A stretch of 64,000 nucleotides of DNA, from NCBI GenBank assembly GCA_963995525.1, contig OZ023213.1:42392276-42456275 (forward strand). Direction: 5' to 3'. The position numbers were made by a program, and so were the translations under genes. This stretch comes from Escarpia spicata (Eukaryota; Annelida; Polychaeta; Sabellida; Siboglinidae). Position 1 is the stretch's first letter; every line of letters starts with the position of its first letter. Below the pieces are notes generated by a model that worked only from the letters and a program-made list of their open reading frames with translations, did no database searches and was not told where the DNA came from. This document shows positions 2,028 through 24,899 of this stretch, one piece after another.

Positions 2028-2721
2028 TTATTTTGAAATGGCTAGCCCCAATTGTCGCCACTGTTCACGGTCGAGTGCGCGCAGAGCGTCGACATCGGCG
2101 CGGCAACATAGCGTACGGCCTATGCGTCGCAGGTCCGCGCTGAACGCTGTCGGCAGTGTCGTTCGCGGTCGATCCATGTATGTCGTGACACCTGTGTCCA
2201 CGGCGAAATAGTTGTCGATCGCTCGCTGAGCGGGTGCATCGGGTGGCATACGGAGCACGTGCCCGAATAGACTCCATCTTGCAGTTATGACAGCTTCGCT
2301 GATGGGACGGCATTGGCAACGGTGGTAGAGTGCCTCGTTGGAAATGCGATGTGGCCAACATATGCCGATGATCTGGCGTAGATGACGACGGTGGTACGCA
2401 TCCAGATGATCTAGTTCTAATTTCGTGAGTCCCCATGTACCCAGGATGCGTATAGCCGTAGCCGCAGCTGTAGAGAGATCTGTGATCGCCTGAACCACAG
2501 TGTCCACAGCTTGCGGAAGGCGACGTTGGCCAGCTGCTTTCGGCGAGCGACGTATTCGGCTTCACCGAGGAGCGTTCCAAGCTTGCGTGTCATACGCCAC
2601 TCTTCCTGAATGCGGTCAGCGTGTCGGCTGATACTTGTTCGTTCTGTTTTCGACGCGTTGATCGTCAGCGACCACTCCGCCAAGCAAGCTGGCGCGATGC
2701 GCTCAATCTCGTCGAGGAACG
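2028..2721 (-). pseudogene. LINE C fragment: end of reverse transcriptase and C-terminal domain
   Basis: Two overlapping minus frames (2683-2417 and 2507-2028) together give the end of a non-LTR reverse transcriptase ORF, with one frameshift near 2450. The first part holds FLDEIERIAP and AEWSLTINASKTE, the region just after the YADD box. The second holds the typical LINE C-terminus HLRQIIGICWPHRISNEAL and WSLFGHVLRMP. Its upstream part is at 16440-17327, on the far side of element E1. Removing E1 and one AACGAG copy fuses the frames: the codons run from the YADD box through VSSSRSFLDEIE without a break. The LINE clade is not assigned. Confidence 0.85.
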
Positions 2722-2727
2722 AACGAG
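2722..2727. repeat. 6-bp target site duplication of E1, left copy
   Basis: AACGAG abuts the AGTAGTAAGCG end of E1 and matches 16434-16439 exactly. Confidence 0.85.
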
Positions 2728-3189
2728 AGTAGTAAGCGTGTGGTTTTCGCCCCCGTGTAAAAAAGTCATGTACCCAAGATCAAAGGAAGATCAAAGGAAT
2801 AGGCTCCGCCCCACAATTTTTTCCTAAAACTTAGCACCTATAGAGAAAAAGTCAACATCAAAGGATTTTGCACTTTTTCCTAAAACTTAGCACCGGAACT
2901 AAATACCCTTAATTACCCTTAATTACCTTTGATTGACAGGACCACCCAACGTCGCTGACCCGTTGCCCTTAGTGCGTGTAATGTATGTGTTTCGTTTCTC
3001 TATACTTGAGGGGCGTGATTGACAGGCCCAACAACAAATCAGAGGCTTAGAATGAGTCTAGGGCAACAATCTGCTGTATTAAGGAGATGTTCAGCGTTGA
3101 CCCCGTGCCATTTGCGTGTGTGTTTTCGTTTCGCTGCACTCTAGTGGCGCCGTTTTGATCGTCAGACCTAAGGTAGGGCTAAAATAACT

Positions 3190-3640
3190 GAATATTGCCT
3201 ATAGCCATTGTACCGGCACAAAACCACTGTATAAAAGAGTTGCCTGCTAATTGGAGCTGCGTTGATGAGTACGAAATTAGTACTGAGTGGTTATAATCAC
3301 TGTACCAGTACATAACCACGTATAAAAGTTCTACGCTGTTAGGCGGCTGTGTTGTTGTGAAACTTGATACAGGGACTGGTGTAAAGTCCGTACGCTGCTA
3401 GTGACCGCTGTAATGTGTGTTTTCGTTTCTCTGCACTCTAGTGGCGTTGTTTGGATCGTCAGACCTAAGGTAGGGCTAAAACAACTGAATATTGCCTATA
3501 ACCATTGTACCGGCACAAAACCACTGTATAAAAGAGTTGCCTGTTAATTGGAGCTGCGTTGATAAGGCCGAAAGTGGCTATAATCATAACCACGTACATA
3601 ACCACATAACCACGTATAAAAGTTCTACGCTGGGTTGTTG
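3190..3640 (+). promoter_or_regulatory. tandem TATA-containing blocks, E1 left arm
   Basis: The block 'ACCATTGTACCGGCACAAAACCACTGTATAAAAG' style unit recurs four times (TATAAAAG near 3229, 3321, 3526 and 3616), followed by AGTTGCCTG or TTCTACGCTG. Spacing and repetition look like duplicated core promoters, and the same TATAAAAG-YCTRCGC form precedes an ORF in E2. The mirrored copies are at about 15540-15970. That they act as promoters is inference. Confidence 0.4.
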
Positions 3641-3895
3641 TGAAACTTGATACAGGCACTGGTGTAAAGTCCGTACGCTGCTAGTGACGGCTGTAACATT
3701 CCTGCTTTGTCGTGAGTCGTGACGCCTTCTAGTAGTAGTGTATTTATAGCGTACAGTGTTTCGTTTATAAGCAAGCCTACTATAGTTCGTTTAGTTGGCG
3801 CTCGTAGGGACATACAGTGGTTTTGTGCGTTGGAAAGAATCAAACGACTAGTCGTTGACTGTTATAGTTTAATAAGGCAGAAATGAAGCCTTAGT

Positions 3896-4369
3896 CTAGC
3901 TACGGAGGATGCCGACAAATATTCTATTGCCATCCTGCGATGATGAATCTGATGACGGGACGTGATCATGTGGCAATCCAAAGCAGTGCCGTTGTTGTCG
4001 CCGCCGCGCTGGGCACCGAGGTAAGGCTAATGGGGTGCGTTGAGGCGGTGGTCTAAATTCGGGCCGCTCTGTCAGCACCCATGGGGCAGGAGCGGTCAAC
4101 CCCCATAAATCGGTGTCCGAGTCTCGCTCCCGTGGGCGAGGAGGGAGCGACACCCATAAATTGGTGTCTGGGTCGCGCCACTCTTGCGGGGGCGGCCTAA
4201 CGATGCCGCGTACGACTGCAATCGGTCGATCGGTCCGCCTTGGCTGCAATGGAGGCGGCATTTCGCAGGTTCGTGTTGGCGGTCGGGCCGTAGCGACAGA
4301 GGCGGGTGTATTCGGCGCCGCTGCCATAGCGCGTAGCGTGTAGCCACGTCCCAGCATTTGGGTGGCCAC
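3896..4369 (-). CDS. proline/arginine-rich ORF of E1 module (uncertain gene)
   Basis: A 157-aa open frame rich in Pro, Arg and Thr with repeated PPPLQPRRTDRP- and PPQRTPLALP-like segments, matched by 14802-15275 in the other arm with only a few substitutions. More diverged relatives are at 5178-5560, 13600-13989 and 12655-13094. Upstream on the coding strand is a pyrimidine-rich TTTCTATTCAC(A)G acceptor-like site, so it could be an exon. Against a real gene: overlapping frames are open too, the arms are recent copies so conservation between them proves little, and I recognise no domain. Confidence 0.25.
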   Translation of the reverse strand: MATQMLGRGYTLRAMAAAPNTPASVATARPPTRTCEMPPPLQPRRTDRPIAVVRGIVRPPPQEWRDPDTNLWVSLPPRPRERDSDTDLWGLTAPAPWVLTERPEFRPPPQRTPLALPRCPARRRQQRHCFGLPHDHVPSSDSSSQDGNRIFVGILRS

Positions 4370-4559
4370 TCATTAGGCGAACTGTGAATAGAAATGACTG
4401 AATAAATAAATGAAAATATTCTTGTATATATATATATTTATAGTTGTATATGAATGTTTGTTTGGGGACCCTCTCATTAGATGGACAGTGAATATAAATG
4501 AATAAATAAATAAATAATTCTTGTATATGAATGTTTGCTTTACCATACATAATTTGTGT

Positions 4560-4740
4560 AAGTTGTTTGTTTAGCCGGTTGATTTGTGCAGTTTATGGTG
4601 AAGACGTGTCGTGTGTGGCGTGTTCAAATCTCGCCTGTGTTAAATAGCCAAACACAACAGGTTGTGCACACTCACGGATTCCATTCAACAACTTCAGCCG
4701 CAACATCACCGAATTGCATGGATATTTCCACCTATATTTA
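4560..4740 (+). repeat. SINE-like module with tRNA B-box, copy 1
   Basis: Contains GTTCAAATCTCGCC at about 4622, close to the RNA polymerase III B-box consensus GGTTCRANNCC, followed by GTTGTGCACACTCACGGATTCC. The same tail occurs in the stand-alone SINE at 45415-45540. No A-box could be placed with confidence. Confidence 0.45.
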
Positions 4741-5177
4741 TAGTTGCATATGAATGTTTGTGACTCATTAGATGACCCGTGAATAGAAATGACTAAATAA
4801 ATAAATGATTCTTGTATATGAATGTTTGTTTGTATTTAGGTGCACCCGTGAATATAAATAAATAGTTGTAATGATTGGTTGTTTGTTTAAAAGAGTGTGA
4901 CGTACCGTTCGTGATGTGTGACGACTGTTTTGGAGCGACCTGACATGGCGGCCTGTTTACGCGGTGGCAAATGACGCATTAGTTTCATGTAGGTTGTTGA
5001 CTGCGCCATCTGGGTGCGCACGCATCGAGAGGCGTGTTTACGCGGTGGCAAATGACGCATTAGTTTTATGTAAGTTGTTGACTGCGCCATCGGGTTGCGC
5101 GCGCATCGAGAGGCGTCAAAATCAAACGACTAGTCGTTGACTGTTATAGTTTAATGAGGTAGAAATGAAGCCTTAAT

Positions 5178-5570
5178 CTAGCTACGGAGGATGCCGATAA
5201 ATACTCTATTGCCATCCTGCGATGATGAATCTGATGACGGGACGTGATCATGTGGCAATCCAAAGCAGTGCCGTTGTTGTCGCCGCCCTGGGGCCCTCGG
5301 TGGTTTAGGTAAGGCTAATGGGGTGCGTTGAGGCGATGGTCTAAATTTGGGCCGCCCTGTCCGCACCCTTGGGGCAGGAGCGGTCAACCCCCATAAATCG
5401 GTGTCCGAGTCTCGCTCCCGTGGGCGAGGAGGGAGCGACACCCATAAATTGGTGTTTCTGCGTCGCGCCACTCTTGCGCGGGCGGCCCGACCGCCAACAC
5501 GAACCTGCAAAACGCCGCCTCCATTGCAGCCAAGGCGGACCGATCGACCGACTGCAGTCGTACGCCGCTC
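5178..5570 (-). CDS. proline/arginine-rich ORF of E1 module, second copy (uncertain gene)
   Basis: Related to 3896-4369: shares DTNLWVSLPPRPRERDSDTD and the LPHDHVPSSDSSSQDGNR end. Its N-terminal extension to 5699 is translated AT-rich repeat and is unlikely to be coding. Mirrored by 13600-13989 in the right arm, essentially identical. Function unknown. Confidence 0.2.
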   Translation of the reverse strand, partial: ERRTTAVGRSVRLGCNGGGVLQVRVGGRAARARVARRRNTNLWVSLPPRPRERDSDTDLWGLTAPAPRVRTGRPKFRPSPQRTPLALPKPPRAPGRRQQRHCFGLPHDHVPSSDSSSQDGNRVFIGILRS

Positions 5571-5689
5571 AATTAGATGGACAGTGAATAGAAATGAATA
5601 AATAAATAAATAAATAAATGATTCTTGTATATGAATGTTTGTAAATAAATAAATGATTCTTGTATATGAATGTTTGTTTTGCATTTTGG

Positions 5690-5850
5690 TGCCATACATA
5701 ATTTGTGTAAGTTGTTTGTTTGTTTAGCCGTTTTGTTGTTGTTGTTGAGTTGTGCAGTTTATGGTGACCCAGTGTCGTGTGTGGCAGGTTCAAATCTTGC
5801 CTGTGTTCAAGTATCCAAACACAACAGGTTGTGCACACTCACTGCCATTG
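5690..5850 (+). repeat. SINE-like module with tRNA B-box, copy 2
   Basis: GGTTCAAATCT at 5787-5797 fits the pol III B-box. It lies between GTGTCGTGTGTGGCA and GCCTGTGTTCAAGTA, followed by the GTTGTGCACACTCAC tail. Mirrored at 13320-13470. Confidence 0.5.
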
Positions 5851-6984
5851 CGATATCTGAATCACTCGAACCAAGAATACACACATCTGGTTTACCCGCC
5901 TCTTTATACAGGCCTGGTAAAGGGCGCGCGTGCGCCTGACCACGTACGCTACACAACAGGCGCTTCTGTCAATGCTATTGTCAATAGAAAAAAATTAAAC
6001 GGTCATGCGGTGCATGGGTCGTAAGTCGCCTCTTTAGGGCGAATGTTTTCTAATACAACAGCACCACGCGATTCCTGACCCCCGATTTGTCTTCTAACAT
6101 ACTTATGTTCGAACATTTAGAATTTCATTAAACGAGTTTGAACCATTACTCAAAACAATAGTCAACAACTTACATAACGCCGCACGTGACGCGCCCCTCG
6201 ATGCGGTGCTTTCCCGCGTAAACAATAGTCAACAACTTACATAACGTGGCGCGCCTCTCGACGCGTCACCGGTATTTTTTCCCACGCAAACAGCATTCGC
6301 AGGAGCGCCTAGCCAAGATAATGACGAGTCGCGAAGCGAGCGTCGCACGAAAGGGCCTCCCACATCACGAAAGGTGCGTACGTCACGCTCTTTTAATAAA
6401 CAAACAAACAAACAAACATTCATTATAACTATATACAACTATAAATATATGTACAAGAATTGTTTTTGTTTTCATTTATTTATTTATTTATTTCTATTCA
6501 CAGGGCATCCAATGAAGCGGCGCCAGCGTCCCGGGGCTGTGGCTATATACTCCGTGCTAAGGCGACTATTCCTAATAGAGGCTGCAACGGGGGTGGCGTG
6601 CAAGGTCGGTTCGGCGGGCAGGCCGTGGCAGTATAGGGTTTAGCAGGAATTTCCGCCTTAGTACGGAGTGTATATCCGCGCCCCCAACTTACCCTTTGAT
6701 TGACAGGACCACCGGACCACCCATCTGACAGGTCTACCCAGCTGCGGCAATGGAATACCCAGCGCTTCCCTCTAGCGTGTGTAATGTATGCGTTTTCTCT
6801 ACCCTCTAGTGGTATTGTTTATGAGCCATGAAACAGACTTATGGAAGTTCCCAGGGCCGCTTATTCATTGTTAGAATGATGTTTCTATCAGTTGTACTTG
6901 GAAATGAATGAATAAATAAATGAAATATTCTTGTATACATGATTTGTGTTAGTTGTTTGTCTAGCCATTTTGTTGAGTTGTGCA

Positions 6985-7272
6985 GTTTATCCCATACACA
7001 TATAACATATAGACGGAAGGTTGGGACTCTGACAGGGCCCAGTCACCCCCATACACATAAAACATATAGACGGAAGGTTGGGACTCTGACAGGGCCCAGT
7101 CACCCCTATACACATATAACATATAGACGGAAGGTTGGGACTCTGACAGGGCCCAGTCACCCCCATACACATATAACATATAGACGGAAGGTTGGGACTC
7201 TGACAGTGTCCAGTCACCCCCATACACATATAACTTATAGACGGAAGGCTGGGACTCTGACAGGGTCCAGGT
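6985..7272 (+). repeat. 57-bp minisatellite, five units
   Basis: Unit of exactly 57 bp containing ATAGACGGAAGGTTGGGACT and CATACACATATAACAT. Because 57 is a multiple of three, long repetitive frames (19-aa unit with HTHITYRRKVGTLTG) stay open on both strands; these are not taken as genes. Counterpart at 11290-11460 has three units. Confidence 0.95.
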
Positions 7273-7439
7273 CTGCCTGTCTAGTAAGACCACACAGTGC
7301 TGGCATGAGCCTCTCTGTTGTAGTGCCCTCTGTCATCTTGTAGCTCCCAAACAGTGCTAGCGTCAGCCTCTCAGTTGTAGTGCCCCCTGTCATTTCGTAA
7401 CACCAAACAGTGCTAGCATGAGCCTCTCCATTGTAGTGC

Positions 7440-7920
7440 CTCCAGCATACACGTTGAAATCGATCTGCGCCTTATCTCCATCGCCTCGCAGCAGCCGTGA
7501 AACTAGGACAAAAGATCACCAGGTCAACGCCATACTAGTGACTGCTTAAATGTGAAGAAAAGTCTGTTGTAGTTTTGGTCGCTTAATAAAACGTATTCTT
7601 CCTGTTTACTGTTCCCGCATACACGATCAGAAATGTTGATTAAAACGTTGAATTCTTTCTGTTGAACGTTCCCGCATACACGATCAAAAAAACGTATGAA
7701 AATCCTCGCCCGTTGAAACCGATCCGCCCGTTATCTCCATCGCGTTGCGGCAGCCGTTTAACTAGGACAAAAGATCACCAGGTCAACGCTATACTAGTGA
7801 CTGCTTAAATGTGAAGAAAAGTCATTTGTAGTCGCTTAATAAAACGTATTCTTCCTGTTCCCGCATACACGAACAGAAATGTTGCTTAAAACGTTCTTTC
7901 CCGCTTATTTCCACCTATAC
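7440..7920. repeat. E1 arm spacer with internal duplicated segment
   Basis: Two copies of a roughly 300-bp block containing GACAAAAGATCACCAGGTCAACG and TTCCCGCATACACGA (7490-7700 and 7760-7900). Mirrored at 10660-11120. No coding sequence recognised. Confidence 0.7.
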
Positions 7921-8087
7921 TGGAAACTGTAGACAGCATTAGCATGACACTTTTAAATCACCAGTGGGTCCAATGATACAGTGTATACACTGCCTGTCTA
8001 ATAAGACCAAACAGTGCTAGCATGAGCCTCTCTGTTGTAGTGCCCTCTGTCATCTTGTAGCTCCCAAACAGTGCTAGCGTGAGCCTC

Positions 8088-8580
8088 CCCCATACATATA
8101 TAACATATATACAGAAGGTTGGGACTCTGACAGGGTCCAGTCACCCCCATACACATATAACATATAGACAGAAGGTTGGGACTCTGACAGTGTCCAATTA
8201 CATCCATACACATATAACATATAGACGGAAGGTTGGGACTCTGACATTGTCCAGTCACCCCCATACACATATAACTTATAGACGGAAGGTTGGGACTCTG
8301 ACAGTGTCCAGTCTCCTCCATACACATATAACATATAGACAGAAGGCTGGGACTCTGACAGGGTCCAGTCACCCCCATACACATATAACATATAGACGGA
8401 AGGTTGGGACTCTGACAGGACCCAGTCACCCCCATACACATATAACATATAGACAGAAGGTTGGGACTATGACAGGGTCCAATCACCCCCATACACATAT
8501 AACATATAGACGGTAGGTTGGGACTCTGACAGTGTCCAGTCACCCCCATACACATATAACATAGAGACGGAAGGTTGTTC
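8088..8580 (+). repeat. 57-bp minisatellite, about eight and a half units
   Basis: Same 57-bp unit as 6985-7272 with variants (GACAGGGTCC, GACAGTGTCC, GACAGGACCC). Counterpart at 9787-10490 has about twelve units, so the arms have changed copy number independently. Confidence 0.95.
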
Positions 8581-9078
8581 ATCAACACAGGCCTATAGCC
8601 ATTTAACGGCGTAGGACTTTTATCCAGTGGCTATACGTGGCTATGTACTGGTACAGTGATTATACGTATTCTTTAGTGGTTATGTACTGCTTTTACCCAT
8701 ACCTTCATCAACACAGGTGTATGGCCCCTTTTAAAGGCGCAGGACTTTTATACAGTGGCTAAACCTTGTTATGTACTGGTACAATGGTTATACGTATTCT
8801 TCAGTGGTTATGTACTGATTTTACCCATACTTTCAATCTACGTAAGTACAACTGGCAGAAACACCATTCTAACGATGAATAAACGGCCCTGGGCAGTCCC
8901 ATAAGTCTGTTTCACGGTTCGTAACAATACCACTAGAGGGTAGAGAAAACACATATATTACACACGCTAGAGGGCTCGCTTTCCATGTTGTGTACCGTGT
9001 TTTTATTAGTACCTAAGAGGAGTTGTACTTACGTAGATTGAAGGTATGGGAGTGTACTGTGTTTTTATTAGTACCTAG

Positions 9079-9304
9079 GAGGGAAGTAGCTCAACGACGC
9101 GCGTTCGACGACGGCGTCACCACGACGCCCATACGCGTATGAGGTGAACTCCAGCCGGCCCCTCTAGGGGTAGGGCCCTAAGGACTAGGGCGCCTTATAG
9201 GCGCCTCCTAGGGGTAGGACCCTAGGGCGCCTTATAGGCGCTAGGGACTGGGGCGCCTATAAGGCGCCTCCTAGGTAGGTAGGGACTAGGGCGCCTATAA
9301 GGCG
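9079..9304. other. E1 centre: GC-rich loop with four nested palindromes
   Basis: This is the only sequence between the two arms, whose inner ends pair through GTACTGTGTTTTTATTAGTACC (9052-9073) and its complement from 9312. It contains GGCGCCTTATAGGCGCC-type palindromes at about 9188-9205, 9225-9240, 9251-9268 and 9289-9306, alternating TTATA and TATAA cores, linked by CCTAGGGG. Their order is itself nearly inverted, so the loop could fold into a small cruciform. Origin, hairpin tip or residue of repeated fold-back events are all possible; none is shown. Confidence 0.7.
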
Positions 9305-9604
9305 CCTCCTAGGTACTAATAAAAACACAGTACACAACATGTGCGTTTTCATCGTTTTTTAATTGAGTACAGTAAGCGGAAAGCGAGCCCTCTAGCGTGT
9401 GTAATATATGTGTTTTCTCTACCCTCTAGTGGTATTGTTACGAACCGTGAAACAGACTTATGGAAGTGCCCAGGGCCGTTTATTCATCGTTAGAATGATG
9501 TTTCTGCCAGTTGTACTTACGTAGATTTAAGGTATGGGTAAAATCAGTACATAACCACTGAAGAATACGTATAACCATTGTACCAGTACATAACAACATA
9601 TAGC

Positions 9605-9626
9605 CACTGTATAAAAGTCCTGCGCC
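9605..9626 (+). promoter_or_regulatory. TATA core promoter shared with E2
   Basis: TATAAAAGTCCTGCG at 9610-9624 is identical over 15 bp to the TATA region of the first ORF of E2 (18253-18267). The mirrored copy in the left arm is at about 8733-8747. Similar blocks repeat at 9540-9770. Confidence 0.45.
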
Positions 9627-9786
9627 GTTAAAAGGGGCCATACACCTGTGTTGATGAAGGTATGGGTAAAAGCAGTACATAACCACTAAAGAATACGTAT
9701 AATCACTGTACCAGTACACAGCCATGTATAGCCACTGGATAAAAGTCCTACGCCGTTAAATGGCTATAGGCCTGTGTTGATGAACA

Positions 9787-10490
9787 ACCTTCCGTCCTAT
9801 GTTATATGTGTATGGGGGTGATTGGGCCCTGTCAGAGTCCCAAACTTCTGTCTATATGTTATATGTGTATGGGGGTGACTGGGTCCTGTCAGAGTCCCAA
9901 CCTTCCGTCTATATGTAATATGTGTATGGGTGTGACTGGATCCTGTCAGAGTCCCAGCCTTCTGTCTATATGTTATATGTGTATGGGGGTGACTGGGTCC
10001 TGTCAGAGTCCCAACCTTCCGTCTATATGTAATATGTGTATGGGGGTGACTGGATCCTGTCAGAGTCCCAGCCTTCTGTCTATATGTTATATGTGTATGG
10101 AGGAGACTGGACACTGTCAGAGTCCCAACCTTCCGTCTATAAGTTATATGTGTATGGGGGTGACTGGACACTGTCAGAGTCCCAACCTTCCGTCTATATG
10201 TTATATGTGTATGGATGTAACTGGACACTGTCAGAGTCCCAACCTTCCGTCTATATGTTATATGTGTATGGATGTAACTGGACACTGTCAGAGTCCCAAC
10301 CTTCCGTCTATATGTTATATGTGTATGGGGGTGACTGGGCCCTGTCAGAGTCCCAACCTTCTGTCTCTATGTTATATGTGTATGGGTGTAACTGGACCCT
10401 GTCAGAGTCCCAACCTTCTGTCTATATGTTATATGTGTATGGGGGTGACTGGACCCTGTCAGAGACCCAACCTTCTGTATATATGTTATA
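9787..10490 (-). repeat. 57-bp minisatellite, about twelve units
   Basis: Inverted counterpart of 8088-8580. The 270-aa and 180-aa frames that run through it are repeat translation (CMGVTGPCQSPNLPSICYM-like), not genes. Confidence 0.95.
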
Positions 10491-11289
10491 TATGTACGCT
10501 AGCACTGTTTGGGAGCTACAAGATGACAGAGGGCACTACAACAGAGATGCTCATGCTAGCACTGTTTGGTCTTACTAGACAGGCAGTGTATACACTGTAT
10601 CATTGGACCCACTGGTGATTTAAAAGTGTCATGCTAATGCTGTCTACAGTTTCCAGTATAGGTGGAAATAAGCGGGAAAGTTACGTTCAACAGAAAGAAC
10701 GTTTTAAGCAACATTTCTGATCGTGTATGCGGGAACAGGAAGAATACGACTTTTCTTCACATTTAAGCAGTCACTAGTATAGCGTTGACCTGGTGATCTT
10801 TTGTCCTAGTTAAACGCGACGCGATGGAGATAACGGGCGGATCGGTTTCAACGGGCGAGGATTTTCGTACGTTTTTTGATCGTGTATGCGGGAACGTTCA
10901 ACAGAAAGAATTCAACGTTTTAATCAACATTTCTGATCGTGTATGCGGGAACAGTAAACAGGAAGAATACGTTTTATTAAGCGACCAAAACTACAACAGA
11001 CTTTTCTTCACATTTAAGTAGTCACTAGTATGGTGTTGACCTGGTGATCTTTTGTCCTAGTTACACGGCTGCTGCGAGGCGATGGAGATAAGGCGCGGAT
11101 CGATTTCAACGTGTATGCTGGAGGCACTACAATGGAGAGGCTCATGCTAGCACTGTTTGGTGTTACGAAATGACAGAGGGCACTACAACTGAGAGGCTGA
11201 CGCTAGCACTGTTTCGGAGCTACACGATGACAGAGGGCACTACAACAGAGAGGCTCATGCCAGCACTATGTGGTCTTACTAGACAGGGA

Positions 11290-11460
11290 GACCTGGACCC
11301 TATCAGAGTCCCAGTCTTCCGTCTATAAGTTATATGTGTATGGGGGTGACTGGGCCCTGTCAGAGTCCCAACCTTCCGTCTATATGTTATATGTGTATGG
11401 GGGTGACTGGGCCCTGTCAGAGTCCCAACCTTCCGTCTATATGTTATATGTGTATGGGAT
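11290..11460 (-). repeat. 57-bp minisatellite, three units
   Basis: Inverted counterpart of 6985-7272 with two units fewer. Confidence 0.95.
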
Positions 11461-12474
11461 AAACTGCACAACTCAACAAAATGGCTAGACAAACAACTAA
11501 CACAAATCATGTATACAAAAATATTTCATTTATTTATTCATTCATTTCCAAGTACAACTGGTAGAAACATCATTCTAACAATGAATAAGCGGCCCTGGGA
11601 ACTTCCATAAGTCTGTTTCATGGCTCATAAACAATACCACTAGAGGGTAGAGAAAACGCATACATTACACACGCTAGAGGGAAGCGCTGGGTATTCCTTT
11701 GCCGCAGCTGGGTAGACCTGTCAGATGGGTGGTCCGGTGGTCCTGTCAATCAAAGGGTAAGTTGGGGGCGCGGATATACACTCCGTACTAAGGCGGAAAT
11801 TCCTGCTAAACCCTATACTGCCACGGCCTGCCCGCCGAACCGACCTTACACGCCACCCCCGTTGCAGCCTCTATTAGGAATCGTCGCCTTAGCACGGAGT
11901 ATATAGCCACGGCCCCAGGACGCGGGCGGCGCTTCATTGGATGCCCTGTGAATAGAAATAAATAAATGAAAACAAAAAAAATCTTGTATATATATTTATA
12001 GTTGTATATCGTTATAATGAATGTTTGTTTGTTTGTTTATTAAAAGAGCGTGACGTACGCACCTTTCGTGATGTGGAAGGCCCTTTCGTGCGACGCCCGC
12101 TTCGCGCCTCGTCATCATCTTGGCTAGGCGCTCCTGCGAATGCTGTTTGCGTGGGATAAAATACCGGTGACGCATCGACAGGCGCGCCACGTTATGTAAG
12201 TTGTTGACTATTGTTTACGCGGGAAAGCACCGCATCGAGGGGCGCGTCACGTTCGGCGTTATGTAAGTTGTTGACTATTGTTTTGAGTAATGGTTCAAAA
12301 TCGTTTAATGAAATTCTAAATGTTTTTATTGACAATAGCATTGGCAGAATCGCCTGTTGTGTAGCGTACGTGGTCAGGAGCACGCGCGCCCTTTACCAGG
12401 CCTGTATAAAGAGGCGGGTAAACCATATGTGTGTATTCTTGGTTAGAGTGATTCAGATATCGCAATGGCAGTGA

Positions 12475-12600
12475 GTGTGCACAACCTGTTGTGTTTGGAT
12501 ACTTGAACACAGGCAAGATTTGAACCTGCCACACACGACACTGGGACATCTTTGCCATAAACTGCACAACTCAACAAAATGGCTAGACAAACAACTAACA
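12475..12600 (-). repeat. SINE-like module with tRNA B-box, copy 3
   Basis: Minus-strand GGTTCAAATCTTGCC at about 12514-12528 with the GTTGTGCACACTCAC tail at 12470-12485. Same module as 5690-5850. Confidence 0.5.
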
Positions 12601-12654
12601 CAAATAATGTATACAAGAATATTTCATTTATTTATTCATTCATTTCCATTTACA

Positions 12655-13094
12655 GGCCGTCTAATGAGGAGGCGCCCAAAGGCTGGGAACGTGGATATAC
12701 GCTCCGCGCTAAGACAGTGGCGCCGAATAACCCCACCTCTATTACCACGACCTTCCCGCCGAGACGAACCTATAGCACGCCGCCACCATTACAGCCGAGA
12801 CGGACCAACCGAGGCACTGCCGCCGTACGCGGCGTCGTTAGGCCTGATCCGCACGCGAAAGATTGGCGAGATCGACGCGACTCGGACACCGAGTTATGGT
12901 CGACCCCAGTCCCACCGGAGAGGACAGGGCGGCGCGGCTTTGGACTGCCACCTCAACGCACCCCAGTCTCCTTACCTCAGCCATCATCACAAGCCACACT
13001 TCACGGACATCCGCTATTATCATCGACACCACCGAGGGCCATAGCGCGGCGCTGCTTTGGATTGCCACCTCAACGCAGCCCCACTCCCTTTTAA
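12655..13094 (+). CDS. proline/arginine-rich ORF of E1 module, diverged copy (uncertain gene)
   Basis: Open frame following a TTCCATTTACAG acceptor-like site. It is a clear but diverged relative of 14802-15275: the PPPLQPRRTNRGTAAVRGVV segment is recognisable and an internal FGLPPQRTP/S segment occurs twice. The left arm lacks a matching copy. Divergence with the frame still open is slightly better evidence for a coding past than the arm-to-arm identity, but no domain is recognised. Confidence 0.25.
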
Positions 13095-13319
13095 ACAAAC
13101 AATCATTCATTATAACTATTTATTTATTTCTATTCACGGGTGCACCTCAATGCAAACAAACATTCATATACAAGAATCATTTATTTATTTATTTATTCAT
13201 TTCTATTCACGGGTCATCTAATGAGTCACAAACATTCATATGCAACTATAAATATAGGTGGAAATAAAATATCCATGCAATTCGGTAATGTTACAAATGC
13301 GGCTGAAGTTGTTGAATGG

Positions 13320-13470
13320 AATCCGTGAGTGTGCACAGCCTGTTGTGTTTGACTACTTGAACACAGGCAAGATTTGAACCTGCCACACACGACACTGGGT
13401 CACCATAAACTGCACAACTCAACAACAACAACAAAACGGCTAAACAAACAAACAACTTACACAAATTATG
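13320..13470 (-). repeat. SINE-like module with tRNA B-box, copy 4
   Basis: Minus-strand GGTTCAAATCTTGCC at about 13368-13383. Mirror of 5690-5850. Confidence 0.5.
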
Positions 13471-13599
13471 TATGGCACCAAAATGCAAAACAAACATTCA
13501 TATACAAGAATCATTTATTTATTTACAAACATTCATATACAAGAATCATTTATTTATTTATTTATTTATTCATTTCTATTCACTGTCCATCTAATTGAG

Positions 13600-13989
13600 C
13601 GGCGTACGACTGCAGTCGGTCGATCGGTCCGCCTTGGCTGCAATGGAGGCGGCGTTTTGCAGGTTCGTGTTGGCGGTCGGGCCGCCCGCGCAAGAGTGGC
13701 GCGACGCAGAAACACCAATTTATGGGTGTCGCTCCCTCCTCGCCCACGGGAGCGAGACTCGGACACCGATTTATGGGGGTTGACCGCTCCTGCCCCAAGG
13801 GTGCGGACAGGGCGGCCCAAATTTAGACCATCGCCTCAACGCACCCCATTAGCCTTACCTAAACCACCGAGGGCCCCAGGGCGGCGACAACAACGGCACT
13901 GCTTTGGATTGCCACATGATCACGTCCCGTCATCAGATTCATCATCGCAGGATGGCAATAGAGTATTTATCGGCATCCTCCGTAGCTAG
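13600..13989 (+). CDS. proline/arginine-rich ORF, mirror of 5178-5570 (uncertain gene)
   Basis: Essentially identical to its left-arm counterpart, ending ...SSSQDGNRVFIGILRS. See 3896-4369 for the arguments for and against coding. Confidence 0.2.
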   Translation, partial: RRTTAVGRSVRLGCNGGGVLQVRVGGRAARARVARRRNTNLWVSLPPRPRERDSDTDLWGLTAPAPRVRTGRPKFRPSPQRTPLALPKPPRAPGRRQQRHCFGLPHDHVPSSDSSSQDGNRVFIGILRS

Positions 13990-14489
13990 ATTAAGGCTTC
14001 ATTTCTACCTCATTAAACTATAACAGTCAACGACTAGTCGTTTGATTTTGACGCCTCTCGATGCGCGCGCAACCCGATGGCGCAGTCAACAACTTACATA
14101 AAACTAATGCGTCATTTGCCACCGCGTAAACACGCCTCTCGATGCGTGCGCACCCAGATGGCGCAGTCAACAACCTACATGAAACTAATGCGTCATTTGC
14201 CACCGCGTAAACAGGCCGCCATGTCAGGTCGCTCCAAAACAGTCGTCACACATCACGAACGGTACGTCACACTCTTTTAAACAAACAACCAATCATTACA
14301 ACTATTTATTTATATTCACGGGTGCACCTAAATACAAACAAACATTCATATACAAGAATCATTTATTTATTTATTTATTTAGTCATTTCTATTCACGGGT
14401 CATCTAATGAGTCACAAACATTCATATGCAACTATAAATATAGGTGGAAATATCCATGCAATTCGGTGATGTTGCAGGTGAAGTTGTTG

Positions 14490-14640
14490 AATGGAATCCG
14501 TGAGTGTGCACAACCTGTTGTGTTTGGCTACTTAACACAGGCGAGATTTGAACACGCCACACACGACACGTCTTCACCATAAACTGCACAACTCAACCGG
14601 CTAAACAAACAACTTACACAAATTATGTATGGTAAAACAA
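14490..14640 (-). repeat. SINE-like module with tRNA B-box, copy 5
   Basis: Minus-strand GTTCAAATCTCGCC at about 14540-14554. Mirror of 4560-4740, including its variant B-box. Confidence 0.45.
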
Positions 14641-14801
14641 ACATTCATATACAAGAATTATTTATTTATTAATTCATTTCTATTCACTGTCCATCTAATG
14701 AGAGGGTCCCCAAACAAACATTCATATACAACTATAAATATATATACAAGAATATTTTCATTTATTTATTCAGTCATTTCTATTCACAGGTCGCCTAATG
14801 A

Positions 14802-15275
14802 GTGGCCACCCAAAGGCTGGGACGTGGCTACACGCTTCGCGCTATGGCAGCGGCGCCGAATACACCCGCCTCTGTCACTACGGCCCGACCGCCAACACGA
14901 ACCTGCGAAATGCCGCCTCCATTGCAGCCAAGGCGGACCGATCGACCGATTGCAGTCGTACGCGGCATCGTTAGGCCGCCCCCGCAAGAGTGGCGCGACC
15001 CAGACACCAATTTATGGGTGTCGCTCCCTCCTCGCCCACGGGAGCGAGACTCGGACACCGATTTATGGGGGTTGTCCGCTCCTGCCCCATGGGTGCTGAC
15101 AGGGCGGCCCGAATTTAGACCACCGCACCAACGCACCCCATTAGCCTTACCTCGGTGCCCAGCGCGGCGGCGACAACAACGGCACTGCTTTGGATTGCCA
15201 CATGATCACGTCCCGTCATCAGATTCATCATCGCAGGATGGCAATAGAATATTTGTCGGCATCCTCCGTAGCTAG
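14802..15275 (+). CDS. proline/arginine-rich ORF, mirror of 3896-4369 (uncertain gene)
   Basis: 157-aa frame preceded by a CATTTCTATTCACAG acceptor-like site at 14774-14788. Differs from the left-arm copy at only a few residues (for example T/A, S/T, G/E and H/P changes). Function unknown. Confidence 0.25.
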   Translation: MATQRLGRGYTLRAMAAAPNTPASVTTARPPTRTCEMPPPLQPRRTDRPIAVVRGIVRPPPQEWRDPDTNLWVSLPPRPRERDSDTDLWGLSAPAPWVLTGRPEFRPPHQRTPLALPRCPARRRQQRHCFGLPHDHVPSSDSSSQDGNRIFVGILRS

Positions 15276-16433
15276 ACTAAGGCTTCATTTCTGCCTCATT
15301 AAACTATAACAGTCAACGACTAGTCGTTTGATTCTTTCCAACGCACAAAACCACTGTATGTCCCTACGAGAGCCAACTAAACGAACTATAGTAGGCTTGC
15401 TTATAAACGAAACACTGTACGCTATAAATACACTACTACTAGAAGGCGTCACGACTCACGACAAAGCAGGAATGTTACAGCCGTCACTAGCAGCGTACGG
15501 ACTTTACACCAGTGCCTGTATCAAGTTTCACAACAACCCAGCGTAGAACTTTTATACGTGGTTATGTGGTTATGTACGTGGTTATGATTATAGCCACTTT
15601 CGGCCTTATCAACGCAGCTCCAATTAACAGGCAACTCTTTTATACAGTGGTTTTGTGCCGGTACAATGGTTATAGGCAATATTCAGTTGTTTTAGCCCTA
15701 CCTTAGGTCTGACGATCCAAACAACGCCACTAGAGTGCAGAGAAACGAAAACACACATTACAGCGGTCACTAGCAGCGTACGGACTTTACACCAGTCCCT
15801 GTATCAAGTTTCACAACAACACAGCCGCCTAACAGCGTATAACTTTTATACGTGTTTATGTACTGGTACAGTGATTATAACCACTCAGTACTAATTTCGT
15901 ACTCATCAACGCAGCTCCAATTAGCAGGCAACTCTTTTATACAGTGGTTTTGTGCCGGTACAATGGCTATAGGCAATATTCAGTTATTTTAGCCCTACCT
16001 TAGGTCTGACGATCAAAACGGCGCCACTAGAGTGCACAGAAACGAAAACATACACGCAAAGGGCACGGGGTCAACGCTGAACATCTCCTTAATACAGCAG
16101 ATTGTTGCCCTAGACTCATTCTAAGCCTCTGATTTGTTGTTGGGCCTGTCAATCACGCCCCTCAAGTATAGAGAAACGAAACACATACATTACACGCACT
16201 AAGGGCAACGGGTCAGCGACGTTGGGTGGTCCTGTCAATCAAAGGTAATTAAGGGTATTTAGTTCCGGTGCTAAGTTTTAGGAAAAAGTGCAAAATCCTT
16301 TGATGTTGACTTTTTCTCTATAGGTGCTAAGTTTTAGGAAAACATTGTGGGGCGGAGCCTATTCCTTTGATCTTCCTTTGATCTTGGGTACATGACCTTT
16401 TTACACGGGGGCGAAAACCACACGCTTATTACT

Positions 16434-16439
16434 AACGAG
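16434..16439. repeat. 6-bp target site duplication of E1, right copy
   Basis: AACGAG, identical to 2722-2727. Confidence 0.85.
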
Positions 16440-17327
16440 AAGAGCTGACGAAGTCCGTGTCGTCAGCGTACTCGACGTCCAGCGGTAGGGTGGCATCGGC
16501 TGGTGGACGTGTCGGGAGGCGCGAACGAAGGTCACGGAGTGCCGCTTCGAGGTACACAATGAATAACACCGGTCTGAGGCTGTCGCGACGTGGCGGCGAG
16601 TAGGTAGCGAATCATCCGCAGTTCCGACTCGCCGAGGAATGTTTGTAGCGTATCAAGCAGCTTGTCGCGACGTATGGTGTCGAAGGCGAGACTCAGATCG
16701 ATGCCGAGGAATTCGATTTATACGTGCTGACGCTGCACTTTAACACACAGCCAACGATACCCGAAGACTACGTCCGCGTCGGAATCCCGATTGCGACGGC
16801 GACAGGTAGTCGTCAACTTTCGGCGCGATCCTCGATAGTACGATGAGAGACAGTGTCTTTCGGAGTACTGATAGTAAGACTATCGGACGCACACTCGATA
16901 GTGGACCTATTGGTTTGCCCGGCTTCTGTATTAATACGAGCACACCTTTGCCTAGGTCGAGCGGTTCGTGTTTTTCCAGTGCATCGTTGAAAATGCTGGC
17001 AATTGTGTTTGCTAACAGGCAGGCCGTGCATTTGAAAAATTCGGCCGGTATGCCATCTTGCTCGTTGGCTCGGCCGCTGTTCAATTTCCCGATCGCTCGC
17101 TTGACTTCTTCTGCTGTGATTGGGTCTGCCAGTCGCGATGGTCTTCCTGTGAAGGCAGGCAGTTCTTGTATAGCTTCGTCGCTGAACTGGCGACTAAAGT
17201 GTTCGGTGACCCGCGCGTTCAGTTCGGCTTTGTTACAGATAACGCTTCCTGAGTCGTCGTGGATCGTTAGCTTGACTGCACGTTTCCTCGTCATTTCATG
17301 AACGGCACGAAACATTTTTTGCGCCAT
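16440..17327 (-). pseudogene. LINE C fragment: reverse transcriptase core
   Basis: The minus frame 17327-16740 carries the start of a non-LTR reverse transcriptase: RPSRLADPITAEEVKRAIG, then GVLVLIQKPGKP, RPIVLLSVLRKTLS and SQSGFRRGRS. Further on, at 16459-16470, EYADDTDFVS is the catalytic YADD box, in another frame, so at least one frameshift lies between 16740 and 16600. The 5' part (endonuclease) is at 29506-30694 beyond E2 and the 3' part at 2028-2721 beyond E1. At the E2 junction the frame continues directly from ...SARLDR into MAQKMFRAVHEM once E2 and one duplication are removed. Confidence 0.85.
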
Positions 17328-17333
17328 CGTGTC
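17328..17333. repeat. 6-bp target site duplication of E2, left copy
   Basis: CGTGTC next to AGTAGTAATAG; the right copy 29506-29511 is CCTGTC, one mismatch. Confidence 0.7.
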
Positions 17334-17375
17334 AGTAGTAATAGAGGTCCCTTATGGTGGACGCTGGCGCCTCCT

Positions 17376-17416
17376 GGTGGCAATCCCATGTTAAGAGATA
17401 GGAATTGCCACCAGAC
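17376..17416. other. subterminal hairpin around ATGTTAAGAGATAGG
   Basis: CTGGTGGCAAT and ATTGCCACCAG form an 11-bp stem enclosing CCCATGTTAAGAGATAGGA, about 45-80 bp from the tip. The right end (29430-29463) has the same core with one arm changed. E3 carries the same ATGTTAAGAGATAGG 74 bp from its own tip. Confidence 0.6.
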
Positions 17417-17559
17417 CGCGCCAAGCGCTTTTCCCGCCAATTATGCAAATTAGGTCTTTGGAGCGTCTCGGAGGAAGTGCAATTGACCAATCACGAGCGA
17501 GCTGGGCCTTGTGGGCGTGGTTAGTTATGCAATTGAGCTTGGAAAAGTATTTCCTACCC

Positions 17560-17800
17560 CGGATTAAAGCATAGGGATTTTAACCCCATGTTAAAGCATA
17601 GGCCATTTTAATCCCACGTTAAAGCATAGGCCATTTTTATCGCAAAGGTATCCGACCACTTTTCGAATTTTAACCCCATGTTAAAGCATAGGCCATTTTT
17701 ATCGCAAAGGTATCCGACTACTTTTCGAATTTTTATCCCGGGTTAAAGCATAGGCCATTTTTATCCCATGTTAAAACATAGGAGCTGTTATCGTAAAGGT
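17560..17800 (+). repeat. E2 subterminal reiterated motif (left)
   Basis: CCCATGTTAAAGCATAGGCCATTTTTAT and variants recur about seven times, interleaved with CGCAAAGGTATCCGACCACTTTTCGAATTT. The same array is at 29025-29285 and, in changed form, in E3 at 34360-34870. Confidence 0.85.
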
Positions 17801-18211
17801 ACGCGACCACTTTTTGAATAAAATAACATATACCGAACACCATTTGAATAGGCTACTCACGAGATTGCTTGATCCGGATGCCGAGGCTTCGCCAAGGAAC
17901 CGACCCGTTATTTGTTTGACGATGACGTGTCCAATATGTGGTGTTATAGTAAGGCGTTGTTATAACAAAAGGCTTATAAATTCAACGGAGACCGTTTTAT
18001 CTGAAGTAATGTATACGAAATGTTTTTTCCGAATAGAGTGACCAAGGAGTACTGTCCAAATTCGTGTCTACTGCACGCTTGCATGCAATAGAGCACCGTG
18101 ACGGATACTTCATGAACCACAAACACCACTTTATGTGACGTCATGACGCAGTGACATCGTTAAAACTCTGCAGTCTGTGCTTTTGAATTTTCTACTCTAC
18201 AATCTGTGATC
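17801..18211. other. E2 TIR spacer, no gene
   Basis: No ORF is supported here. 17820-18030 is nearly identical to E3 at 34880-35100, and to the right TIR at 28830-29040. Confidence 0.6.
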
Positions 18212-18260
18212 TTTCGGCACGCCCACGCGACCTTTATGTTCTGTTGAACTGTTATAAAAG
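18212..18260 (+). promoter_or_regulatory. TIR promoter: TTTCGGCACGCCCACG element plus TATA box
   Basis: TTTCGGCACGCCCACGCGACC at 18212-18232 is followed, about 17 bp after the CTTTA, by TATAAAAG at 18253-18260; an ATG comes at 18307. The pair recurs with similar spacing at 19405-19450, at 28577-28627 (minus) and in E3. The combination and spacing are seen directly; promoter function is inferred. Confidence 0.65.
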
Positions 18261-18306
18261 TCCTGCGTCTGTTTTTTTGTGATCGTTATATCTTACATTT
18301 TGGAAG

Positions 18307-18699
18307 ATGAACAACATGACTAGTGATAACGTCCGACAAGGGATTTTGCTACCGAAGGCGCAGCCTTCTCCGACTATGGGACCACTCGACCTCTCGACCC
18401 AGACAATCAACCCGGACCAACAGCCAACGACCAGTTCAACGACCAGTTCGACGACCAGTTCAACGACCAGTCCGACGACCAGTTCAACGACCAGTCCGAT
18501 GACCAGTTTGACGACCAGCCCGATGACCAGTTTGACGATCAAAACAATTTCGTCTCTGTCATCAGCTCCGACAACCGACCCAATCATCAACCTGACGACA
18601 TCACCTCCGACGAAGCGTCAGAAGCTTCACGAGACTTCGGATGACACATCACACGAGAGTACCGACGAGACAAGAGATATGCCACGAGACTACGGATGA
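18307..18699 (+). CDS. small TIR ORF with PLDLS motif and Thr/Ser repeats
   Basis: A 130-aa frame that starts 47 bp downstream of a TATA box and is uninterrupted, unlike most genes in E2. Order: N-terminal about 20 residues; GPLDLSTQ at about residues 20-28, which contains PLDLS, the consensus of the CtBP co-repressor-binding motif PxDLS; a TTSSTTSSTTSP-type tandem repeat (residues 40-70) from 12- to 30-bp DNA repeats; a PPTKRQKL nuclear-localisation-like run near residue 98; an acidic TSDDTSHESTDETRD tail. Two further copies lie in the right TIR. A short linear motif can arise by chance. Some adintoviruses and adenoviruses carry small regulators with such motifs, so an early regulatory protein is a reasonable guess, not a finding. 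Confidence 0.5.
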   Translation: MNNMTSDNVRQGILLPKAQPSPTMGPLDLSTQTINPDQQPTTSSTTSSTTSSTTSPTTSSTTSPMTSLTTSPMTSLTIKTISSLSSAPTTDPIINLTTSPPTKRQKLHETSDDTSHESTDETRDMPRDYG

Positions 18700-18766
18700 C
18701 GGATGACGTACAATTCATCTCGCCATTCATTTCATTGCTTACACTTGAACCGTAAACACGTACATT

Positions 18767-19024
18767 ATGAGCTTATCGACTAGTCTACCAGCTGCCAACA
18801 AGCCCACACCATCACCATCCTTGGCACCGTTCCAGTGCCCAAATTGCAAGAGACATTTCTCTCGTCGGGAAAACTTGAAACGCCACATTGCCACCGTTCA
18901 CGGTGGACGATCGACAAACACCTCGTCACTGGATTCACTTATATTGGGACCCGCTATAACACCAACGTCTCTGGTCCCAGCGACCAGCTCGACATTCGTG
19001 TCTCCATCTCAAGTTATCGTAAAG
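18767..19024 (+). CDS. zinc-finger first exon (alternative 5' exon)
   Basis: ATG at 18767 opens an 86-codon exon ending at AAAG|GTATGT (donor at 19025). It encodes a proline-rich lead and one classical C2H2 finger, CPNCKRHFSRRENLKRHI...H, at about residues 24-46, then a Ser/Thr-rich linker ending SPSQVIVK. It ends in phase 0, the same phase as the polymerase exon at 19711, so it may be an alternative first exon of that gene. The right TIR has the same finger and linker, there fused directly to a different protein (26369-27100). Confidence 0.55.
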
Positions 19025-19059
19025 GTATGTGATGATATTTTGAATTTTCGGCGTGGAAC

Positions 19060-19400
19060 AAGCGACGCTACTGGCGACGTATCTGGTCTTGTTTGTTTGT
19101 TGCGCGCGAGCGCGCGCGAACCGCACCGTGATTGCGCAATGCCATCGCTCGCGGCTATAAATAAACTCGTACGCGGAGACGTATTTAAACTTGTTTGTTT
19201 GTTGCGCGCGGGAACTGTACTGTGATTGGACAATGTCAATCCTTGTGGCTATAAATAAACTCGTACGCGGAGACGTGTCTGAACTTGTTTGTTTGTTGCG
19301 CGCGGGAACTGCACTGTGATTGGACAAGGTCAATGTTTGTGGCTATAAATAAACTCGTACGCGAAGACGTGTCTGAACTTGTTTGTTTTTGTTCGTGCAC
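19060..19400 (+). promoter_or_regulatory. 94-bp tandem repeats, each with ATTGG and TATA boxes
   Basis: CTATAAATAAACTCGTACGC occurs at 19155, 19249 and 19343, exactly 94 bp apart. Each is preceded by GTGATTGGACAA or GTGATTGCGCAA (inverted CCAAT box, third copy from the top altered) about 25 bp upstream and followed by CTTGTTTGTTTGTTGCGCGCG. A fourth, diverged unit at 19445 becomes the TATA box of the polymerase gene. This looks like an amplified promoter. E3 has a relative at 35205-35280. Confidence 0.6.
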
Positions 19401-19404
19401 GAGC

Positions 19405-19452: not shown

Positions 19453-19490
19453 GTCCGTGGAGACGATCTGCTTGTCATTCGTCATTCGAC

Positions 19491-24833: not shown

Positions 24834-24899
24834 TAGACACGCCAGTAAATCTTCTCGTGAGCTACCCGTGTATCATTCGGTATTGTTGTAACATTTAGT

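What the first reader, a model, noticed from the sequence alone, without database searches (positions are those of the whole stretch)
2728..16433. A 13.7-kb fold-back element with Polinton-type ends and an exact 6-bp target duplication
The two arms (6.4 and 7.1 kb) are inverted copies meeting at a 226-bp loop. The tips AGTAGTAA/TTATTACT and AACGAG duplications are those of a Polinton. Such elements normally have TIRs of a few hundred to about 1500 bp around genes. An element that is essentially all TIR, with no replication or capsid gene, would be an unusual non-autonomous form. It might arise by hairpin-end replication of a protein-primed linear genome.
Basis: partly seen in the sequence, partly recalled or inferred. 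Interest (0 to 1): 0.88.

Follow-up and report, generated by a model that had tools for sequence, protein, structure and literature searches.

The report
Gene-free fold-back Polinton and its kin
A 13.7-kb stretch of an animal genome looks like a virus-like mobile element (a Polinton) reduced to one of its own ends copied head to head, without recognisable genes, whose kin of the same build sit at several other sites; it resembles a defective satellite living off gene-bearing relatives.

Summary
Confirmed: window 2728-16433 is a 13,706-bp fold-back. Arms of 6.36 and 7.13 kb meet at a 222-bp loop and are 97.7% alike over 6,040 aligned bases (138 substitutions, 17 indels), which speaks against a folded read. 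The mirror stops at AGTAGTAA-type tips flanked by AACGAG; removing it restores a reverse-transcriptase-like frame.

The same genome holds gene-bearing Polintons with such tips, a TIR of ~326 bp, integrase and packaging ATPase. The outer 2.4 kb of both E1 arms matches ONE end of them, at up to 96% (N end). Of 38 N-end loci, 11 have opposed N ends. Four fold-backs (E1, C, E, N) share an inner breakpoint (6 of 8 arms) yet sit in four different exact 6-bp duplications: the fold-back itself moves. A 1.7-kb copy is a minimal snap-back with a 5-bp turn-around.

Best reading: a helper-dependent, copy-back (defective-interfering-like) Polinton lineage. Unexpected: in ten coding copies the terminal 25 bp differ 1% between the two ends but 25% between elements, and fold-back tips match different coding tip types. 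Replicative origin and helper dependence are inferred.

The parts
2728..16433 (.). fold-back Polinton E1, 13,706 bp
2722..2727 (+). left target-site duplication AACGAG
16434..16439 (+). right target-site duplication AACGAG
2728..9082 (+). left arm (6,355 bp)
9305..16433 (-). right arm (7,129 bp)
9083..9304 (.). loop, 222 bp, with GGCGCC-containing repeats
2728..5118 (+). outer left arm, collinear with the N end of coding Polinton D (positions 1-2388, 96.4%)
   Evidence: other coding copies
14049..16433 (-). outer right arm, same N end (2388-1, 95.7%)
2728..3053 (+). part equal to the short TIR (about 326 bp) of coding copies, left
16108..16433 (-). part equal to the short TIR of coding copies, right (inner border approximate)
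5120..6990 (+). left middle arm: re-used, partly inverted and diverged pieces of the same N end (ref D 1120-1479, 1572-1487, 1746-1808, 1774-1945, 2660-2372 and smaller ones), with gaps
11459..14047 (-). right middle arm: similar mirrored patchwork, longer than the left
6991..7270 (+). 57-bp tandem array, 4.9 copies
8087..8577 (+). 57-bp tandem array, 8.6 copies
9785..10496 (-). 57-bp tandem array, 12.5 copies
11293..11458 (-). 57-bp tandem array, 2.9 copies
7441..8087 (+). inner-arm sequence used as probe; no listed match at the coding copies read (40 of 291 candidates scored)
2028..2721 (-). target: downstream part of a LINE-like reverse-transcriptase frame
16440..17327 (-). target: RT part of the same LINE (...VEYADDTDFVSS...; RVT_1 match below cut-off)
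17334..29505 (+). neighbouring polymerase-bearing Polinton E2 (TIR about 1.37 kb, tips AGTAGTAA) in the same LINE; reference for the tips
17328..17333 (+). E2 left duplication CGTGTC (right copy 29506-29511 CCTGTC, one mismatch)
29512..30573 (-). upstream endonuclease-like frame of the same LINE (Exo_endo_phos_2 match below cut-off)

Best explanation
E1 is a transposed copy of a fold-back, gene-free Polinton lineage. Its ancestor arose from a coding Polinton of this genome by inverted duplication of its gene-poor N end, most likely when the polymerase turned back on a displaced strand during protein-primed replication (a copy-back, defective-interfering-type genome). Later template switches within the same end and uptake of a 57-bp-repeat stretch lengthened the arms. 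Because both ends carry the whole origin and integrase site, the fold-back is copied by the polymerase/terminal protein and inserted by the integrase of coding relatives in trans, giving 6-bp duplications. Shown: the structure, its source end, the shared breakpoint at several sites, the duplications, the coding relatives. Inferred: trans-replication, the replicative origin, helper dependence.
For: (1) Outer arms = one end of coding copies: 2728-5118 to D 1-2388 at 96.4%, 14049-16433 to 2388-1 at 95.7%; where the other end of a coding copy was aligned to the arm (G, I, M, P) it shares only ~326 bp. (2) The jump from N-end position 2388 to 1120 is in 6 of 8 arms of E1, E, N and C, with exact, different duplications AACGAG, GATGAC, TGAGTG, TGACAC. 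(3) Coding copy M carries rve integrase (E 2.6e-12) and a packaging ATPase (Adeno_IVa2 2.2e-6, Pox_A32 6e-6), all above cut-off; G and M carry NADAR. (4) B (1,723 bp, duplication TACGGA): N end 1-570 joined to 1148-1 over a 5-bp overlap. (5) 11 of 38 N-end loci hold opposed N ends; the reversed-pattern control has 0 sites. (6) Tips of E1/E, N, C, B match the coding tip types H1, K, I, G at 92-100%, while the left tips of E1 and N differ 36%. (7) AGTAGT end repeats, as reported for vertebrate Mavericks and tied there to jumping-back (PMC8097293, passages).
Against: Nothing shows extrachromosomal fold-back DNA or activity. Arms of one element are not always each other's closest relatives over the first 1,050 bp: E left-right is 95.4% against 98.0 and 97.8 to E1, C left-right is 96.3% against 96.2 and 97.2 elsewhere, while E1 (99.1) and N (98.1) are above (S and B are not comparable there, their arms differ in build). 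E1 arm identity is lower and uneven inward, down to 89.6% in the last 500-bp bin. Outside the tip, E1's closest coding copy changes from segment to segment. The N end is not the only one doubled: C4:4.11 is an opposed C-end pair with its own duplication. One element, O, has unlike tips. The inner arm's origin is unknown. Polymerase of E1's own coding relatives rests on a Pfam match below cut-off (E 0.028) and a 32-aa overlap with the E2 polymerase. Capsid genes were not identified (model useless).
Confidence: 0.72

Rival explanations
1. Chromosomal origin: the inverted duplication arose in integrated copies by gene conversion or break repair (one TIR repaired from the other with the tract running inward, as proposed for Galileo), and the product later transposed.
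For: The Galileo paper proposes this and says that expansion of inverted repeats has been reported for Polintons (PMC3573991, passages). Arms of E and C look mosaic; E's right arm lacks the stretch from about N-end 1051 to the second 1145, as if lost between direct repeats, and C's left arm runs collinear to 2595 without the jump.
Against: Conversion alone keeps the interior; B has none, only the end twice, with unequal lengths and a 5-bp overlap. Fold-backs must be mobile afterwards in any case (shared breakpoint, different duplications).
Confidence: 0.35
2. A fold-back transposon of another superfamily (Foldback/Galileo, TU-like) with chance Polinton-like tips.
For: Long arms with internal repeats are typical of those elements (Galileo description in PMC3573991, passages; the rest recalled).
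Against: 6-bp duplications in 21 of 24 pairs counted, 3 with one mismatch; arms up to 96% identical to the end of elements of which M carries a retroviral-type integrase.
Confidence: 0.03
3. Assembly artefact: a fold-back read or collapsed palindrome.
For: One other locus here, C12:38.70-38.73, is 99.9% mirrored through its flanks.
Against: E1 arms differ by 138 substitutions and 17 indels; its flanks are different parts of one frame, not mirrored; direct duplications; the frame is restored across the site; the 2388-1120 breakpoint recurs on four chromosomes.
Confidence: 0.03
4. Coincidental nesting: two separate Polinton ends inserted head to head, not one element.
For: E2 lies in the same LINE, so insertions are clustered here.
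Against: One pair of duplications, at the outer tips; one search lists no further tip motif inside E1 (100 of 108 sites listed); the build recurs and none of the 38 N-end loci shows an inward-pointing pair.
Confidence: 0.02

Closest known systems
Polinton/Maverick (adintovirus-like) elements
   Same: 6-bp duplications, (AGT)2 tips, source of both arms; coding relatives with integrase and packaging ATPase in the same genome
   Different: no recognised gene; end duplicated head to head; vertebrate intact TIRs are reported at 46-1,447 bp (PMC8097293, passages), here 6-7 kb
Copy-back or snap-back defective adenovirus genomes, including the symmetric recombinants called SYREC (recalled; one search listed no paper on them)
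   Same: as recalled: about 2 kb of one viral end mirrored, protein-primed replication of the parent, foreign or rearranged middle
   Different: here integrated and at several sites of a genome
Foldback / Galileo elements of Drosophila
   Same: non-coding copies made of very long internally repeated TIRs (PMC3573991, passages)
   Different: [quoted passage not shown] the source family here is a Polinton
TU elements of sea urchin (recalled)
   Same: fold-back anatomy with repeats in the arms
   Different: 8-bp duplications as recalled; relation to Polintons not tested

Membership tests
Polinton/Maverick | 6-bp target-site duplication | tested here: met
   E1 exact; 21 of 24 pairs exact, 3 with one mismatch; 7 further pairs left out of that count are told in the full report
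Polinton/Maverick | 5'-(AGT)2 or (AG)3 tips | tested here: met
   AGTAGTAA left; right AGTAATAA, one base off; AGTAGT at coding copies
Polinton/Maverick | terminal inverted repeats | tested here: met
   nearly the whole element is mirrored
Polinton/Maverick | protein-primed PolB | tested here: not met
   none found in the E1 frames scanned; relatives only
Polinton/Maverick | retroviral-type integrase | tested here: not met
   none found in the E1 frames scanned; in coding relative M above cut-off and in K just below it
Polinton/Maverick | packaging ATPase, protease, capsid proteins | tested here: not met
   none found in the E1 frames scanned; ATPase in M; protease and capsid not identified in relatives
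Non-autonomous derivative of a Polinton family | end sequence shared with coding members of the same genome | tested here: met
Non-autonomous derivative of a Polinton family | several insertions of one defective structure | tested here: met
   E1, E, N, C share a breakpoint (6 of 8 arms) with four different duplications
Defective-interfering copy-back genome | one end mirrored, unequal arms joined at short homology | tested here: met
   copy B, 570 against 1,148 bp, 5-bp overlap; in E1 itself the first turn is no longer visible
Defective-interfering copy-back genome | replicates only with helper, interferes with it | not testable with these tools
   inferred only
Foldback/Galileo | P-type transposase in full-length relatives | tested here: not met
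   full-length relatives have Polinton-type genes and 6-bp duplications; no P-type transposase among the frames scanned

The most novel reading that the evidence does not exclude
Animal genomes carry heritable satellites of Polintons: gene-free copy-back genomes that compete with their helper. Their terminal ~25 bp act as an origin 'type' that is rewritten on both ends together and must match a helper, so fold-backs swap tips to follow different helpers; and the preferred duplication of the gene-poor N end marks that end as the one with a cis signal (packaging or replication), as in adenovirus.
Probability: 0.3. Interest if true: 0.87.

Novelty: new variant of a known kind. Interest (0 to 1): 0.68.

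Why it matters
As far as I know (recalled), replication of Polintons outside the chromosome like protein-primed viruses is mainly inferred from their genes. Copy-back products fixed in a genome would be a fossil trace of that replication, and a minimal one (B) records a single turn-around. The matched, fast-changing 25-bp tips give a sequence handle on which helper copied which element, and the excess of N-end duplications (11 of 38 loci against 2 of 73 for a deeper C-end probe) points to one end as the possible carrier of a cis signal. It also warns annotators that long palindromes with 6-bp duplications may be Polinton satellites, not errors.

Tried and rejected
Artefact, other superfamily and nested pair: rejected, see rivals. 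Coding function of the N end: the 157-191-aa open frame there has nearly even codon-position differences (168/161/198 over six copies) and the E1 frame has no Pfam match, so I treat it as non-coding. N-end exclusivity: my first impression from six fold-backs; rejected after the C-end probes found an opposed C-end pair with its own duplication at C4:4.11 and, at C4:58.33, a copy whose C-end probe is mirrored but whose deeper probe is not. Arms as a clock: rejected, left-right identity is not consistently highest. Capsid in relatives: the structure model of a candidate minor capsid protein had pLDDT 28 and was not searched. Empty-site copies of the LINE: query did not complete, so the empty site rests on frame restoration alone. 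Host species: not identified. Integrase homologues: the query could not be made. Papers: the rows listed by searches (titles and abstract starts; long hit lists were cut) showed none on fold-back or defective-interfering Polintons; the library lacks most subscription journals.
Full report
What is there. Window 2728-16433 is an inverted repeat over nearly its whole length (95% covered by inverted matches). BLASTN gives 98.4% over the outer 3.1 kb and 92-96% in the longer inner pieces. An alignment of the two arms gives 97.7% over 6,040 columns with 138 substitutions and 17 indels, one of 854 bases. The innermost mirrored 31-mers leave a 222-bp loop, 9083-9304. Both arms carry arrays of a 57-bp unit. 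The mirror stops at tips AGTAGTAA and TTATTACT, and direct AACGAG copies flank it.

Insertion. The flanks are frame of a LINE-like reverse transcriptase on the minus strand; the Pfam matches (RVT_1 E 7e-4, Exo_endo_phos_2 E 1.3e-3) are below the curated cut-off, so the name also leans on the YADD box (recalled). Joining the flanks with one AACGAG kept gives an open frame through that box (VEYADDTDFVSSS-RSFLDEIERIAPACLAEWSLTINASKTERT). A second element, E2 (17334-29505), sits in the same LINE. Its tips are AGTAGTAATAGAGGTC at both ends, its duplication is CGTGTC/CCTGTC, its TIR is about 1.37 kb at 97%, and it carries polymerase-like sequence in several separate frames. Its 551-aa piece had no Pfam match itself but 1,890 relatives at E 0.001 or better; of the 120 listed a part carry PF03175, and named ones come from Littorina, Patiria, Branchiostoma and Oculina. 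So a polymerase-bearing element with the same first eight bases lies 900 bp from E1.

Relatives. The window lies in a 1.06-Gb genome. The first 573 bp of E1 gave 95 matches, a lower bound as 40 of 250 candidates were scored. A 24-base piece of the tip region occurs 108 times with up to two mismatches (100 listed), its reversed control 0 times. I read both ends of 36 element pairs. In four (C3:24.83, C4:56.17, C5:11.58, C5:11.61) the tips lay outside the stretch fetched, and in C2:49.42 the script found no right tip. Of the remaining 31, one search counted 24: 21 exact 6-bp duplications and 3 with one mismatch (I, H2, E2), 23 distinct left words (K and C4:4.11 share one), against at most 7 exact in 10,000 shuffles. 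I left seven out of that count: C12:38.70 (flanks inverted, no match), C10:49.84, C6:13.21 (read by eye), and C2:44.08, C2:44.29, C2:49.52, C3:10.81, which look like segmental copies; those last six have exact duplications in the output. With the seven, 27 of 31 are exact.

Two forms. Copies G, I, M and P have TIRs of about 310-330 bp and are 7-15% inverted; B, C, E, N, S and E1 are 76-95% inverted. Among coding copies, M has integrase (rve, E 2.6e-12) and an ATPase matching Adeno_IVa2 and Pox_A32, above cut-off; K has rve just below cut-off; G and M have NADAR; J, D and K have an RPA-like frame just below cut-off. The polymerase of this subfamily shows only weak direct matches: DNA_pol_B_2 at E 0.028, below cut-off, in F, a 32-aa overlap at 44% with the E2 polymerase, and no polymerase among the PDB hits. 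NCBIfam puts the integrase nearest IS481, below cut-off. Capsid proteins were not identified.

Source of the arms. Coding copies have one gene-poor end of about 2.7 kb (N end) and one with NADAR close to the tip (C end). E1's outer arms are the N end: positions 1-2388 of D at 96.4% and 95.7%, 91-97% in the long pieces from most other copies and 87-88% from P and R. Inward, the arm reuses pieces of the same 2.66 kb, forward and inverted, at 72-94%. The jump 2388 to 1120 is in both arms of E1 and N, the left arm of E and the right arm of C, not in E right or C left. Their duplications are AACGAG, TGAGTG, GATGAC and TGACAC. One defective structure thus reached four sites. The inner arm (7441-8087) had 114 matches (40 of 291 candidates scored); none of the listed places falls in the coding copies read, several fall in opposed loci, and more distant ones (80-84%) mostly lie elsewhere.

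A minimal copy. B (C5:49.72) is 1,723 bp with TACGGA on both sides: N end 1-570, then N end 1148-1, overlapping by 5 bp, TATAA. D itself has TATAC on the second side; E1 has TATAA there. Unequal arms with the rest of the longer arm as loop are what a polymerase that turns back would leave. Its tips are those of G, and its arms are 97-98% like G, with D as close in one segment.

How common. An N-end probe just inside the TIR has 58 sites, all listed, control 0, in 38 loci; 11 hold opposed sites, all pointing outward, and no locus holds an inward pair. Six of the 11 were read at both ends as fold-backs (E1, B, C, E, N, S); C4:48.22 was read and is more complex; C15:26.31, which also carries C-end probe sites, C6:20.23, C10:46.22 and C9:62.58 are known by coordinates only. 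C6:48.57 adds one by inverted inner arms and an exact AGTGTG. A C-end probe gave 221 sites, 100 listed; among those I see four opposed pairs (C4:4.11, C4:58.33, C2:64.43, C12:38.70). A deeper one gave 76 sites, all listed, in 73 loci, two opposed (C4:4.11, C12:38.70). Fisher tests of 11/38 against 4 of about 96 (listed sites) or against 2 of 74 (typed before the same call counted 73) give p of 1.6e-4 and 1.0e-4. The probes differ in depth and the C-end probes lie in gene-bearing sequence that may be shared with other lineages, so the bias is suggestive only. Four more loci have arms related to the N end of E1 (mostly 72-88%) mirrored at 99.6-100% over 2.1-2.56 kb.

The tips. In ten coding copies the first 25 bp differ by 1.2% between the two ends of one element but by about 25% between elements; positions 26-290 differ by 7.2% within and 8-12% between. 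Over 22 elements the mean is 0.55 mismatches within and 6.97 between, 0 of 10,000 shuffles as low. Nine elements with both tips read were not in that set: the seven named above, E2, and O, whose left tip is shortened and unlike its right one, a case against. Fold-backs follow coding types: E1 and E match H1, N matches K, C matches I, B matches G (92-100%), though the left arms of E1 and N, 96-99% alike from position 26 on, are only 64% alike in the first 25 bp. The two ends therefore seem to copy each other or to be selected together. Annealing of the two ends of a displaced strand (panhandle, described for adenovirus in PMC9863843, passages) would do the former; a match to a helper's priming apparatus would do the latter. 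I cannot tell which.

Literature. Vertebrate Mavericks have (AGT)2 tips, 6-bp duplications and TIRs of 46-1,447 bp (PMC8097293, passages). The Galileo paper explains fold-backs by conversion and mentions reported expansion of Polinton inverted repeats, citing other works that I have not seen (PMC3573991, passages). The adenovirus packaging domain lies at the left end (PMC5033970, passages). SYREC and TU elements are recalled. The rows listed by searches for defective-interfering or fold-back Polintons showed none.

Verdict. Observation confirmed; Polinton origin well supported; mobility of the fold-back as a unit well supported; helper dependence probable; copy-back replication as the origin more likely than conversion but open.

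Noticed in passing
17334-29505: A second, polymerase-bearing Polinton with AGTAGTAA tips, 1.37-kb TIRs and a one-mismatch 6-bp duplication, in the same LINE as E1.
   Followed up: partly
L041, L042 (G000:C12:38.70-38.73 Mb): A 27.8-kb opposed C-end pair whose two fetched ends, 60 bp of flank included, mirror each other at 99.9%: a genomic inverted duplication or an assembly palindrome, unlike E1.
   Followed up: partly
L057-L064 (G000:C3:24.83, C4:56.17, C5:11.58, C5:11.61): A further group, 12.9-18.7 kb between tip-motif sites, with N-related arms mirrored at 99.6-100% over at least 2.1 kb; tips not read.
   Followed up: partly
G000:C2:73.26-73.28 Mb: Five tip sites in the same orientation about 2.5-2.9 kb apart, a tandem array of Polinton ends.
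   Followed up: no
L012, L016-L021, L023, L025, L031-L033, L037, L038, L043, L044, first 25 bp of each element end: Terminal 25 bp matched within and hypervariable between elements, with a change of behaviour near position 25.
   Followed up: yes
38084-38129 (-) and 39031-39075 (+): Two divergent histone 3' stem-loops above the Rfam gathering score with no ORF of 100 aa or more between them.
   Followed up: no
51534-54654: A 1.37-kb unit repeated head to tail about 2.3 times at 95-98%, with a 141-aa open frame in two of the units.
   Followed up: no
510-1022 (-): Frame with a sub-threshold PNMA (gag-like) match.
   Followed up: no
target duplications of the 24 pairs: Position 4 of the left 6-bp word is G in 18 of 24 and position 3 is C or T in 20 of 24, a possible target preference over coding and fold-back copies together (not tested against the genome's composition).
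   Followed up: partly
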